In this document: piece by piece, positions 1-27,812 of the stretch
Layout: each line of letters begins with the position of its first letter
Position numbering within the stretch: the stretch's first letter is position 1
Assembly: GCA_020438395.1 (NCBI GenBank)
Contig: JAGQUR010000100.1
Coordinates: forward strand, 1 to 32,637
From: Solirubrobacterales bacterium
GTDB lineage: Bacteria > Actinomycetota > Thermoleophilia > Solirubrobacterales > 70-9
Reading direction: 5' to 3'
Length of the DNA: 32,637 nt
Notes under the pieces: model-generated
What the model saw: the letters and a program-made list of their open reading frames with translations, nothing else
The model's database searches: none
What the model was told of the DNA's origin: nothing
Made by a program: the position numbers and the translations under genes

Positions 1-55
1 CCCTGTGCACGACCCGCTCACGGTAGGTGCCGCCTCGGCAGCCCCGCCCTGGAGG

Positions 56-81
56 CCCCTGGCATCCACCCGCTGAAGGTC
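56..81. repeat. 26-bp direct repeat, copy 1
   Basis: These 26 bases recur identically and in the same orientation at 18925-18950. The unit begins CCCCTGGCATCC and ends GCTGAAGGTC. Weaker similarity (a GCCTC block) continues on the left side across a small gap. Both copies lie in intergenic DNA beside GC-rich inverted repeats. Identity and function are unknown. Confidence 0.85.
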
Positions 82-189
82 GGGCCCGGCAGCGCAAGGT
101 GTAACAAGTTTTGTGCGTTGTCTGCGGGAAATGTGTTTCGCCTCCGCTGGCCTGGCCGAGGAAGCCGGCTTTTCGGGGGATTGGGCAGG

Positions 190-263
190 GTTCGGTGGTG
201 TGCTTCCGAAACCTCTGGATGGGGAGCGCGAAGCGCGACGGTTTCGGAGGTACACCACCGGGC
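190..263 (+). repeat. Long near-perfect inverted repeat / RNA hairpin
   Basis: Bases 194-213 pair with 240-259 over 20 positions. Eighteen are Watson-Crick and two are G.U when read as plus-strand RNA; on the minus strand those two become C.A mismatches. Pairing extends outward to 190/263 with further G.U pairs. The 26-nt loop itself contains a small GCGC...GCGC palindrome. The strand bias suggests the functional RNA, if there is one, is read from the plus strand, opposite to def. Confidence 0.75.
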
Positions 264-277
264 GCTGCGGAAACGCC

Positions 278-291
278 CGGAGCCGGCTCCG
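278..291. repeat. 14-bp perfect palindrome
   Basis: CGGAGCCGGCTCCG is its own reverse complement. It directly follows the GGGCG/CGCCC hairpin at 260-278 and lies 41 bp beyond the def stop codon. It could be part of a def terminator region or of the structured element at 190-263; there is no T-tract. Confidence 0.6.
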
Positions 292-331: not shown

Positions 332-853
332 TTAGCGGTAGTTCTGGCGGCGGAAGAGGTCGTCCGTTATCGAGGCGACCCGGTCGAGGAAGAGGATTCC
401 GTCGAGGTGGTCGATCTCGTGGAGGACGCAGCGGGCTTCGAACCCGGCCAGCTGGACCTGGTTCATCTCGAAGTCCCTGAGGCCGTCGAGGAACTCGACC
501 GTCGCCTTGCGAGGGCGACGGACATTGGCGGTCAGGTCGGGCAGGGAGAGGCAGCCCTCGCGGCTGACCTTGGTTCCCTCGGAGCGGTGGACGACCCGGG
601 GGTTGACCAGAACCATCAGTCCATGCGGATCCTTGGCATTCGGGTGGTCGGTCACATCCACCACCGCGATGCGGACGGACTCCGAGATCTGCGGTGCGGC
701 CAGCCCGACGCAATGGTCGAACGAGTCCATCGTGTCGAGCAGGTCGGCGATCACCCGCCCGGTCTCTTCCCGGTCACCGGGGCCGGCCTGGGCCGGGGAA
801 CAGACCGACTTGAGAATCGGGTCGGGGTAGGTGAGAACCTTGCGTACAGCCAC
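332..853 (-). CDS. def: Peptide deformylase
   Basis: Removes the N-formyl group from nascent polypeptides as they leave the ribosome; a cytosolic metalloenzyme. All three family motifs are visible in the 173-residue product. Motif 1 is CVGLAAPQ (residues 48-55), motif 2 EGCLSLP (99-105), where the Cys is a metal ligand, and motif 3 HEIDH (145-149), supplying two His ligands and the catalytic Glu. The length is normal for a bacterial deformylase. One oddity is that the first Gly of motif 1 (usually GxGxAAPQ) is Cys48. The ATG start gives a conventional N-terminus. It is the last gene of a minus-strand run after degV and the ACT gene, with 33 bp separating it from the latter. Confidence 0.95.
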   Translation of the reverse strand: MAVRKVLTYPDPILKSVCSPAQAGPGDREETGRVIADLLDTMDSFDHCVGLAAPQISESVRIAVVDVTDHPNAKDPHGLMVLVNPRVVHRSEGTKVSREGCLSLPDLTANVRRPRKATVEFLDGLRDFEMNQVQLAGFEARCVLHEIDHLDGILFLDRVASITDDLFRRQNYR

Positions 854-16426: not shown

Positions 16427-18766
16427 GTGCGAATCGCCCTTGTCACACCGTATTCGTGGACTTACCAGGGCGGCGTAAACCGGCACGTCCAGTCGCTCGC
16501 CGAGGAGTACATCTCCCGAGGCCATTACGTCCGTGTCATCGCGCCCTTTGATCCACCCGACCGCCTCTCGAAGGTGCTTCACCGTGCCGAGGCGGAAGAC
16601 CGCGAGATCCCGGACTACCTGATCCCGGTCGGGCGCACCTTCGGCATCAACGCGAACGGAGCGGTTTCGAACATTCCGCTGTTCCCCTCGGGCGTGGTGG
16701 AGACCCGTCGCGCGATCGAGGAAGGCGACTTCGACGTCGTCCACCTCCACGAGCCGACCACGCCGGCCAACGGCTGGGACACCTGCCTGTCGAGCGACGT
16801 TCCGGTGGTCGGCACCTTCCACGCCTATTCGACCAAGCCGTTGCCGAATTACATCGCCAACGCGGTCGGCGCCCGGCGCACCCTGAACCGGCTCTCCGCC
16901 CGCATCGCCGTATCCCAGGCGGCCGCCTGGACCGGGCGACGCTGGTTTGGCGGCAATTACACGATCGTCCCCAACGGAGTCGACATCGATGCCGCGCCGA
17001 CCGGCCCCAAGCCCGAGACCGACCATCTGCGTGCGCTCTTCGTCGGTCGCCCCGACGAACGCAAGGGCCTGCCGGTGCTGCTTCGCGCTTTTTCCGCCTT
17101 GGTCGAACACGCCCCCGCCCGGCTCACAGTGGTCGGGGCCGACCCGGATGACGTCCACCGGATCCTGGCCCACCCGGAGCTCTCCGATCACCTGGATCTG
17201 AAGGGCAGGGTCTCCAACGAGGAACTCTGGCGCCAGCTTCACGAGGCCGACGTCCTGGTGGCACCTTCGCTCTCCGGGGAGTCGTTCGGAATGATCCTCA
17301 CCGAGGCATTCGCCGCCGGGACCCCGGTAATCGCATCGGGGATCGCCGGCTACAGCGATGTGGTCACCCACAACCACGACGGCATCCTCGTCCCGCCGGC
17401 CGACCCGCAGGCGCTGGCCGAAGAACTGCAGTGGGCGCACCACGAGCCCGAGCGTCTCGCCGAGATGGGCGAAGCCGCCCGCGAAAGCTCGCAGCGGTAT
17501 GCCTGGAGCTCCGTGGCCGACAAGGTCATGGACGTCTACGAACGGGCGATCGAAGTTCCCGAGCCACGCGACGTGGCCGACCGGGTTCGTCGCCGCTTCG
17601 GCGTCACGCCATCCGACGGCCTGCCGTGGGCGCCGGCCGTGAAGCTTCCCTCGCTTGATCCGGTCCCGGAGGGCGGGTCCGGCCGCCGCAAGGGCTGGAT
17701 ACGAAAAGCCGCGATCGGGTTCATGGCACTGTTCGGGCTCGGCCTGACCGCGATCGCAGCCCAGAAGATAGGCGTCGATCAGGTGGCCGAGGCGGTGGTC
17801 CGCTCCGACATCTCATGGGTGCTGGTCGCGCTCGCCCTGATGGCTTCCTCGCTCTTCTTCCGAGCCTGGTCCTGGTTCTTCATCGCCAAGTCGGCCCTGC
17901 CGCATTCCGGGCTCAAGCGGCGTGACTTCGCCTCGGCGACCATGATCGGGGTGTTGATGTCGGCAACGCTGCCTGCCCGTCTGGGCGAGCCCGCCAGGGC
18001 GATCAGCCTCGCCCGACACACGGGCCGGGCACGGGACACCCTGCCGGTCGTGGTCGGAACGATCGTCTCCCAGACGATGCTCAACATCCTCGCGATCCTG
18101 CTGCTGGGAGCCTTCGTCCTGTCCTCGATGGACAGTGTCTTCCACGGTGGCACCAGGCAGATCCTCCTCTTCAGCCTGATCCCGGCGGTCCTGCTCCTGG
18201 CGGTGATCGCCGCCCCGACCATCCTGGGCAACCAGAGCGGCAAGGGCCGTCTCGCCCGGGTCGGCGCTGTCGTGCATTCGGTGATGCTGCAGGTACGTCG
18301 CGGTCTGACCGTGTTCAGGCATCCGCGCAACGGCGCCCCGGCCGTCGCACTTCAGCTCTTCGCCTGGGTCATCCAGATGCTCTCCTGCTGGGCCCTGATG
18401 TTCGCCCTCGGTCTCGACAGCCAGGCCGGCCTCGCGGCATCCGCTGCGGTGCTGCTGGCGGTCAACGTCACCGCGGTCGTTCCGGTCACCCCGTCGAACA
18501 TCGGCATGTTCCAGGTCGCAGTGATCTTCGTGCTCCACAAAGGGTGGGGGATCTCGACCGCCGACGCGCTCGCCTACGGCGTGATCCTGCAGGCCGTTGA
18601 AATGGCGACCGCGGTCGCCCTCGGCGTTCCGGCCATGCTCCGCGAAGGCCTCACCTGGTCGGACCTGCGCACCCAGGCGATCGCCAGCGCGCCGGTCGAG
18701 CTGGAGGCCTATCCGCAGCGGAAGCGCAGCCAGGAAGAGCGGCGCGAAGTCACCTACACCCGTTAA
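16427..18766 (+). CDS. Fusion of PimA-like glycosyltransferase (GT4) and flippase-like membrane domain
   Basis: 779 residues with two clear parts. Residues 1-375 are a GT4 enzyme close to mycobacterial PimA: YSWTYQGGVNRHVQSLAEE, HLHEPTTP, TFHAYSTK, an IPNGV-type VPNGVDI, and SGESFGMILTEAFAAGTPV with the nucleotide-sugar Glu residues. Residues 376-425 are a linker. Residues 425-735 have about eight membrane spans of the lysylphosphatidylglycerol synthase TM/UPF0104 type; the LPARLGEPARAISLARHTGR and VTPSNIGMFQ motifs are the family hallmarks. PimA mannosylates phosphatidylinositol on the inner leaflet. A fused flippase-like domain suggests synthesis and movement of a glycolipid by one polypeptide; that is inference. 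The GTG start is leaderless-like. Confidence 0.88.
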   Translation: MRIALVTPYSWTYQGGVNRHVQSLAEEYISRGHYVRVIAPFDPPDRLSKVLHRAEAEDREIPDYLIPVGRTFGINANGAVSNIPLFPSGVVETRRAIEEGDFDVVHLHEPTTPANGWDTCLSSDVPVVGTFHAYSTKPLPNYIANAVGARRTLNRLSARIAVSQAAAWTGRRWFGGNYTIVPNGVDIDAAPTGPKPETDHLRALFVGRPDERKGLPVLLRAFSALVEHAPARLTVVGADPDDVHRILAHPELSDHLDLKGRVSNEELWRQLHEADVLVAPSLSGESFGMILTEAFAAGTPVIASGIAGYSDVVTHNHDGILVPPADPQALAEELQWAHHEPERLAEMGEAARESSQRYAWSSVADKVMDVYERAIEVPEPRDVADRVRRRFGVTPSDGLPWAPAVKLPSLDPVPEGGSGRRKGWIRKAAIGFMALFGLGLTAIAAQKIGVDQVAEAVVRSDISWVLVALALMASSLFFRAWSWFFIAKSALPHSGLKRRDFASATMIGVLMSATLPARLGEPARAISLARHTGRARDTLPVVVGTIVSQTMLNILAILLLGAFVLSSMDSVFHGGTRQILLFSLIPAVLLLAVIAAPTILGNQSGKGRLARVGAVVHSVMLQVRRGLTVFRHPRNGAPAVALQLFAWVIQMLSCWALMFALGLDSQAGLAASAAVLLAVNVTAVVPVTPSNIGMFQVAVIFVLHKGWGISTADALAYGVILQAVEMATAVALGVPAMLREGLTWSDLRTQAIASAPVELEAYPQRKRSQEERREVTYTR

Positions 18767-18789
18767 GCCCGGGCACCTGTTGCGGTGAG

Positions 18790-18877
18790 GCCGCGGGGCC
18801 GGCATGCGTCCCCGGGACCTCGTACTCGCTGCGCTCGTACACGGGAGTTTCCCGGGGACGCATACCGACCTCACGGC
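18790..18877 (-). repeat. Long imperfect inverted repeat (28-bp arms)
   Basis: Arms 18790-18817 and 18850-18877 pair over 28 positions, with 14 inner positions perfect (ATGCGTCCCCGGGA). As minus-strand RNA, 27 of 28 pair, including three G.U. As plus-strand RNA, three positions become C.A mismatches. The 32-nt loop contains GTAC...GTAC, which can extend the stem. It lies 24 bp after the GT4 gene and before arsR. There is no T-tract, so it is not a standard terminator. Confidence 0.8.
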
Positions 18878-18924
18878 CGGCCCAGACAGGTCGGGCGCCC
18901 GCCCGCCCGGCCACATAGAGGCGT

Positions 18925-27024: not shown

Positions 27025-27702
27025 ATGACTTTGCAGCCAACGGTTTCGGCCGATGAATGGGAGTCGGCCCGGCAGAAGTTGCTGATCAGGGAAAAGGAAG
27101 TGACCCGGGCGAAGGACGCGCTGGCCGCCGAAAGGCGCCGCATGCCCTGGCTGAAGGTCGAAAAGGACTATGAGTTCGAGGGGCCGGATGGCAGGGTCAG
27201 GCTTCTTGACCTCTTCGAGGGACGCCGGCAACTGATCATCTACCGGTTCTTCTTCGACCCCGAGGTGACCGGCCATCCCGATGCCGGCTGTCCCGGCTGC
27301 TCCTTCGGGGCCGACCAGGTCGCCGACCTCCGGCACCTCAACGCCCGGGACACGACCTTCTGCCACGTCTCCCGGGGCTCGCAGGAGAACATCGGCCGCC
27401 TGAAGGAGAAGATGGGCTGGCAGCAGATCCCCTGGTACACGGTTATCGACGACTTCGACAGGGATATGGGCGTCGGCGAGTGGCACGGAACCAACGCCTT
27501 CATACGCGACGACGATGGCACGATCTACCGCACTTATTTCATCGACGCCCGCGGCGATGAACAAATGGGAAGCACCTGGGCTCACCTCGACCTGACCGCA
27601 CTCGGCCGCCAGGAAGAGTGGGAGGACTCGCCCGAAGGCTACCCCCAGACCCCGCCGTACCAGTGGTGGCGTCGCCACGACGAGTACGAGCCGGTCTCAT
27701 GA
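27025..27702 (+). CDS. DUF899 family thioredoxin-like protein
   Basis: A 225-residue DUF899 protein. The N-terminal helix (REKEVTRAKDALAAERRRMPW) is followed by a thioredoxin-like fold. The diagnostic segment is GCPGCSFGADQVADL (about residues 88-102), a CPxC-like pair in thioredoxin position. RGSQENIGRLKEKMGW and the C-terminal PPYQWWRRHDEY are also typical of the family. The reaction is unknown; a redox role is plausible from the Cys pair. GAGGAA precedes the ATG. This family is frequently found beside ArsR and AHSA1 genes, as here. Confidence 0.9.
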   Translation: MTLQPTVSADEWESARQKLLIREKEVTRAKDALAAERRRMPWLKVEKDYEFEGPDGRVRLLDLFEGRRQLIIYRFFFDPEVTGHPDAGCPGCSFGADQVADLRHLNARDTTFCHVSRGSQENIGRLKEKMGWQQIPWYTVIDDFDRDMGVGEWHGTNAFIRDDDGTIYRTYFIDARGDEQMGSTWAHLDLTALGRQEEWEDSPEGYPQTPPYQWWRRHDEYEPVS

Positions 27703-27812
27703 TCCTCGCCCACATCGCCGGGATCCCGGTCGAGGAGATGCTAATGCTGGCCCCCGCCTTCGCGGGGGCGGGGATAGCCCTTCGCTCCCGCCTGAGGCGG
27801 GAGCGAAGGTAG
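27699..27812 (+). CDS. Putative small membrane protein (37 aa)
   Basis: An ORF starting ATGA-coupled to the DUF899 stop. The product begins MILAHIAGIPVEEMLMLAP, continues with a short hydrophobic stretch (AFAGAGIAL) and ends with a basic tail (RSRLRRERR). The first part reads like a small membrane protein; I think similar peptides with an AHxxGxPVEE start occur in actinomycetes, but this is from memory. The last third is encoded by two terminator-like hairpins, so the tail, or the whole ORF, may be fortuitous. Confidence 0.4.
   Translation: MILAHIAGIPVEEMLMLAPAFAGAGIALRSRLRRERR
27750..27809. terminator. Double hairpin, bidirectional terminator
   Basis: Hairpin 1: GCCCCCGC (27750-27757), loop CTTC, GCGGGGGC (27762-27769). 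Hairpin 2: CCTTCGCTCCCGCC (27779-27792), loop TGA, and its perfect 14-bp complement (27796-27809). They sit between the convergent DUF899 operon and the minus-strand hydrolase, 4 bp from the latter's stop codon, and could end transcription in both directions. No T-tract follows. Confidence 0.75.

What the first reader, a model, noticed from the sequence alone, without database searches (positions are those of the whole stretch)
190..263. 24-bp near-perfect hairpin and neighbouring palindromes downstream of def
The stem at 190-263 has G.U pairs only if read from the plus strand. It is followed by two more palindromic units within 30 bp. Nothing in the coding annotation explains this block; a structured small RNA or a repeat element is possible.
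Basis: partly seen in the sequence, partly recalled or inferred. Interest (0 to 1): 0.5.

Follow-up and report, generated by a model that had tools for sequence, protein, structure and literature searches.

The report
Repeated long hairpin beside gene ends
The hairpin next to the def gene is one of a family of long DNA hairpins scattered beside the ends of unrelated genes in a clade of uncultured actinobacteria; their arms differ in sequence but still pair, which marks them as a new variant of the known extragenic palindromic repeats and not a plain terminator.

Summary
The hairpin is real (window 185-268; RNA z-score -6.45) and is not a def terminator. It is one of 29 distinct copies in its own draft genome (45 matches counting both strands), with relatives in 8 of 18 genomes of its genus. 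Carriers form one clade by def identity. Stems differ in sequence but stay paired (95.5% of cells against 69.9% in shuffles; covariation 0.653 against 0.202). The apex is nearly constant, GA-GC-GNA-GC-GA or a longer-stemmed form. Copies sit mostly within 60 nt of gene ends, are enriched between convergent genes, and lack a U-tract, GTAG/CGTC tag or target duplication, RAYT and reverse transcriptase. Best reading: a lineage-specific family of REP/BIME-like, non-autonomous palindromic repeats, kept foldable because an unidentified enzyme recognises the single-stranded hairpin. A transcribed 3'-end role is the main rival. A second hairpin of the class lies at 18789-18878. Transcription and mobility could not be tested.

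The parts
185..268 (+). core hairpin, subfamily A (arms 185-213 and 240-268)
   Evidence: model R1 match 97.1 bits at 186-267
214..239 (+). terminal loop: one-sided 5' bulge, GA (224-225) facing GA (237-238), mini-stem 226-229/233-236, GAA triloop 230-232
   Evidence: constant or covarying in 14 copies; GA-GC..GC-GA in 69 of 78 copies
160..184 (+). 5' outer arm; pairs imperfectly with 269-290 and resembles the outer arm of other A/B copies
   Evidence: fold of 150-300
269..290 (+).
332..853 (-). def, peptide deformylase; its stop lies 64 nt from the 3' end of the hairpin model
   Evidence: Pfam PF01327, 1.2e-45; distance
18789..18878 (-). second hairpin of the same class with apex GTAC-GA-GC-GCA-GC-GA-GTAC, 22 nt after the stop of the ORF 16427-18766(+) and antisense to it
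   Evidence: three further copies among the loci read (L223, L228, L240)

Best explanation
The block is a copy of a lineage-specific family of long extragenic palindromic repeats, REP/BIME-like and without a gene of its own. Shown: dispersed copies; unrelated flanks in most copies; covarying stems; a near-constant apex; a fixed structured strand; placement beside gene ends. Inferred: copies spread when one DNA strand folds into the hairpin and is recognised at its apex (tandem G.A plus GNA triloop) by an enzyme not yet identified. That would explain why foldability of one strand is kept whichever way the neighbouring genes run. Also inferred: copies survive mainly in gaps between convergent genes and just after stop codons, where insertion harms little and where the transcribed hairpin may shield RNA ends or hold back antisense read-through.
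For: 29 distinct places in the own genome. Subfamily A has seven full copies whose 68-nt cores are identical in five and differ at two or three positions in the other two, with unlike flanks in most of them. Each species has its own dominant stems, for example one stem type repeated in G007. Covariation: 29 of 33 pairs show changes on both sides, 528 such cells against 161.7 in shuffles. G.U 226 against A.C 20 over 78 hairpins; G.U exceeds A.C in all 6 stem-similarity clusters, although one cluster holds 66 of the 78. The loop motif alone points to the same strand in 70 of 78, to both in 6, to neither in 2. In tandem gaps orientation is even, sense to both genes 19 and antisense to both 17, which fits a cause independent of transcription. 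Convergent gaps: 25 of 56 with a hairpin against 3 of 33 without (gaps of 100 bp or more; Fisher p 4e-4). The hairpin's 3' side is nearer a gene than its 5' side in 58 of 71. At two loci a half hairpin is joined to another repeat at the same loop position.
Against: No target-site duplication or common insertion boundary was found, no empty site was shown, and no mobilising enzyme was identified (none among the 25 of 128 neighbour families shown). Several orthologous gaps carry hairpins in two or three species, which could mean long retention for a host function instead of recent movement. Covariation and G.U bias cannot separate RNA from single-stranded DNA: the plus strand is more stable with both parameter sets (74 and 75 of 78).
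Confidence: 0.55

Rival explanations
1. RNA element kept for the host: hairpins at the distal end of intergenic transcripts act as 3'-end stabilisers or as barriers to antisense read-through between convergent genes, without a U-tract.
For: Convergent enrichment 25 of 56 against 3 of 33. Divergent pairs of hairpins, each just before the opposing gene. The structured strand reads toward the nearer gene end in 58 of 71. Orthologous gaps share hairpins across species, for example L111/L121/L132 with the same loop type.
Against: In tandem gaps orientation is even (19 sense, 17 antisense). 0 of 78 copies have TTTT within 12 nt on either strand. Ten of 18 genomes of the genus have no match to the model.
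Confidence: 0.3
2. Classical MITE: a transposase recognises terminal inverted repeats and leaves a target duplication.
For: Short, palindromic, dispersed, no gene.
Against: The centre is the best conserved part and the stems diverge with compensation; no offset pair has direct repeats of 5 nt in more than 3 of 78 copies.
Confidence: 0.07
3. Independent small RNA gene, or an ordinary intrinsic terminator of def.
For: Very stable hairpin near a gene end.
Against: No T-run, structured strand opposite to def, same element beside unrelated genes, no Rfam match.
Confidence: 0.08

Closest known systems
REP elements / REPINs / BIMEs with RAYT (GTAG REPs; Di Nocera 2013, PMC3733652: abstract, found passages and section 15 read)
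   Same: Multi-copy, extragenic, palindromic, strand-specific, often in opposite-orientation pairs of unlike partners, mostly between convergent or same-direction genes and close to stop codons
   Different: Arms of about 28 paired positions or more, against 20-40 bp for a whole REP; no GTAG tag; no Y1 transposase found in any of 8 carrier genomes; conserved apex with freely varying stems
CGTC REPs (same paper)
   Same: Palindromic repeats without a known dedicated transposase; heterodimers in some families
   Different: Stems of 8-9 bp with a CGTC tag there; tag absent here; the word actinobacteria does not occur in that paper's text
ERIC, Correia and other long palindromic intergenic repeats (recalled, not searched)
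   Same: Roughly 100-130 bp, imperfect palindromes in intergenic DNA
   Different: No sequence or lineage link shown
Intrinsic terminators
   Same: Hairpin just after genes; compensatory change is also known there (PMC5381666, only the start of the abstract seen in a search listing)
   Different: No U-tract; repeated family; structured strand mostly antisense to the nearest gene

Membership tests
GTAG/CGTC REP | unpaired GTAG or CGTC tag at one end | tested here: not met
   Within 10 nt of the model ends, over both flanks of 78 hairpins: GTAG 1, CTAC 4, CGTC 3, GACG 3
GTAG/CGTC REP | RAYT (Y1_Tnp, PF01797) in the genome | tested here: not met
   0 of 8 carrier genomes; only G004 of 18 in the genus, a non-carrier; assemblies are drafts
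GTAG/CGTC REP | location near stop codons, convergent or same-direction gaps, opposite-orientation pairs | tested here: met
   compared with section 15 of PMC3733652
MITE | target-site duplication | tested here: not met
   No enriched direct repeat at any offset pair; element boundaries remain uncertain
MITE | parent transposon with the same ends | not tested
   No systematic search of insertion sequences; no transposase among the 25 of 128 neighbour families shown
Intrinsic terminator | U-tract after the stem | tested here: not met
   0 of 78 with TTTT in 12 nt on either strand
Retroelement-derived hairpin | reverse transcriptase in the genome | tested here: not met
   PF00078: 1 of 18 genomes (G004, non-carrier); drafts
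Kink-turn | 5' bulge followed by tandem G.A between two stems | tested here: inconclusive
   GA-GC..GC-GA in 69 of 78; the bulge is longer than the classical 3 nt and the fold in space is untested; consensus recalled
Known Rfam family | match above gathering score | tested here: not met
   0 matches in the window

The most novel reading that the evidence does not exclude
A class of non-autonomous mobile hairpins distinct from REP, in which a single folded DNA strand with a tandem-GA/GNA apex is recognised by an unidentified enzyme and the stem sequence is free to drift as long as it pairs.
Probability: 0.3. Interest if true: 0.65.

Novelty: new variant of a known kind. Interest (0 to 1): 0.45.

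Why it matters
This family gives an unusually clean covariation record for an extragenic palindromic repeat: stems that diverge while pairing is kept, a fixed strand and a near-constant apex. It defines a testable recognition motif and points to a missing mobilising or binding protein in a clade where no RAYT was found. It also offers a natural series for asking whether such repeats are kept for themselves or for their hosts.

Tried and rejected
Plain def terminator: rejected (no T-run, wrong strand, repeated beside unrelated genes). Known RNA: none. Phage or plasmid cargo: no match to window 160-290 in the phage and plasmid collections, and the loop pattern had no hit in viral contigs. Wider spread: the loop pattern ATGGGGAGCGNAGCGACGG hit 30 stretches in genome contigs. 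The 11 hits in other taxa and one positive control were folded; none of the 11 formed the hairpin. RAYT and reverse transcriptase as mobilisers: not found in carriers. Target duplications: none. A dimer as the mobile unit: one C-A dimer type recurs at three loci in G000 (at one of them the C partner is degraded), but most pairs join unlike hairpins. Model R2: 10 of 232 genomes of the order, 9 of 399 of the class, including one lone match in G398 that I did not examine. Literature: four topic searches and one on GCGAAGC hairpins listed no description of this family; the library holds only open-licence PMC papers.

Rows dropped: from the 135 matches I kept the better strand of each place and dropped the duplicate locus L083, leaving 84 rows. 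Six of these were left out of the counts of 78: L074, L075, L076, L077, L084 (another genus) and L081:1617 (a different loop). Alignment A5 contains one hairpin (L070) in both strands. Not every match was fetched with flanks. Gene positions come from a simple caller of my own, not from annotation. The shuffle controls do not correct for relatedness, and A5 was fitted to the model's structure.

Full report
Observation. The stem at 190-263 is present as described and extends to 185-268 with a 26-nt loop. The plus strand folds at -75.0 kcal/mol (z -6.45, 0 of 200 shuffles as good), the minus strand at -55.4 (z -4.78). The asymmetry arises because the imperfect positions are G.U on the plus strand and A.C on the minus strand. 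The small palindromes that follow are present; in the fold of 150-300 they largely take part in an outer stem of the same hairpin. def lies at 332-853 on the minus strand.

A repeat family. A DNA search of the own genome found seven further places at 88-96% identity plus weaker ones. Aligning them showed several stem types around one loop. Fourteen copies gave alignment A3, in which 96.7% of cells pair and 89 cells carry changes on both sides against 35.0 in shuffles. A covariance model (R1) found 45 matches at 29 distinct places in the own draft genome. In 101 relatives it matched 12 genomes, 8 of the genus and 4 weakly in another genus. A second model (R2) matched 10 of 232 genomes of the order, 8 of them in the genus, and 9 of 399 of the class. 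Named contigs with the same loop belong to Solirubrobacterales and Actinomycetota MAGs; one of them, folded as a positive control, forms the hairpin. By def identity, the seven carriers with an orthologue (own genome included) are at 84-100% and the eight non-carriers with one at 66-79%; G007 (carrier), G003 and G016 (non-carriers) had no match above 40%. As far as searched, the family is confined to one clade of the genus, with weaker look-alikes in a second genus.

Structure. On 70 distinct rows, 95.5% of cells pair (shuffled 69.9), 29 of 33 pairs have changes on both sides, and the covariation score is 0.653 (shuffled 0.202; at most 0.152 when partners are slid by one to three columns). Over 78 hairpins the gapless stem has 1719 Watson-Crick, 226 G.U, 20 A.C and 141 other pairs; the loop motif alone gives the same strand in 70 of 78, both strands in 6 and neither in 2. 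The apex is GA-GC..GC-GA in 69, GAGCGC-NNN-GCGCTC in 6 and other in 3; the commonest inner pieces are GCGAAGC (24) and GCGCAGC (19). From recall, d(GCGNAGC) is an exceptionally stable DNA mini-hairpin, and a one-sided bulge followed by tandem G.A pairs is the layout of a kink-turn; neither was tested. The plus strand is more stable in 74 of 78 with RNA parameters and 75 of 78 with DNA parameters, so RNA and single-stranded DNA are not separated.

Place. Gene positions are from a simple caller of my own. Of 71 copies with both neighbours called, 31 lie between convergent genes, 19 are sense to both, 17 antisense to both and 4 lie between divergent genes. Gaps with a hairpin: 25 convergent, 28 tandem, 3 divergent. 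Gaps of 100 bp or more without one in the same loci: 3, 25, 5 (p 4e-4); against all gaps without one, 23 convergent of 201 (p 2e-7). The hairpin's 3' side is within 60 nt of a gene in 51 of 71 and its 5' side in 13 of 71. There is no T-run (0 of 78). Of the families matched by 124 neighbouring proteins, the 25 most frequent of 128 were shown and are ordinary cellular ones.

Turnover. Orthologous gaps in different species often both carry a hairpin, but of another stem type or on the other strand (for example L032/L134, L004 and L123/L143, L107/L125/L142), and sometimes of the same loop type (L111/L121/L132). This fits either a preferred site used repeatedly or old pairs with loss and rapid sequence replacement. 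At two loci another repeat, F, joins a half hairpin at the same loop position, just before TGGGGAGC, and has a complete hairpin on its other side; F also precedes a hairpin at a third locus. Such mosaics recall BIMEs.

Mechanism. The even orientation in tandem gaps, the bursts of near-identical copies per species and the strand-specific foldability together favour selection during copying of a folded single strand. The convergent enrichment and the shared orthologous gaps favour, or at least allow, a role as a transcribed hairpin. I commit to the first at 0.55 and hold the second at 0.3. The enzyme is unknown: PF01797 and PF00078 were not found in any of the 8 carriers, with the reservation that all are drafts.

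Comparison. In placement and pairing the family works like the REP elements described in PMC3733652 (abstract, passages and section 15 read). It fails the tests for their tags and for RAYT, so it is not filed as a REP. It is best called a new variant of extragenic palindromic repeat.

Noticed in passing
window 18789-18878: A second long hairpin of the same class on the minus strand, 22 nt after the stop of the ORF 16427-18766; three more copies seen in the genome (L223, L228, L240).
   Followed up: partly
window 1-100: A different repeat (GGAGGCCCCTG..CACGACCCGCT..) that recurs, seen by eye, beside hairpins in L133 and L088 and beside def in L187 and L191.
   Followed up: no
L004 1620-1736, L032 507-625, L034 1290-1380: Repeat F (about 110 bp) joined to a half hairpin at the same loop position at two loci and next to a whole hairpin at three.
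   Followed up: partly
L187, L188, L190, L196 (3' side of def in other species): The def gap in relatives holds other long palindromes (GTGGGTCGG..CCGACCCAC; GGTGCCGCAGGTTT..AAACCTGCGGCACC; arms around an ATATAG loop), including in the non-carrier G014, so the genus seems rich in several hairpin families.
   Followed up: no
L077 1501-1604, L084 1501-1605, L075 1501-1602: Another genus of the family has long hairpins with 46-49-nt loops that end in GCTGCGCGAC.
   Followed up: no
window 27779-27809: Perfect 14-bp hairpin with a 3-nt loop, 76 nt after the ORF ending at 27702.
   Followed up: no
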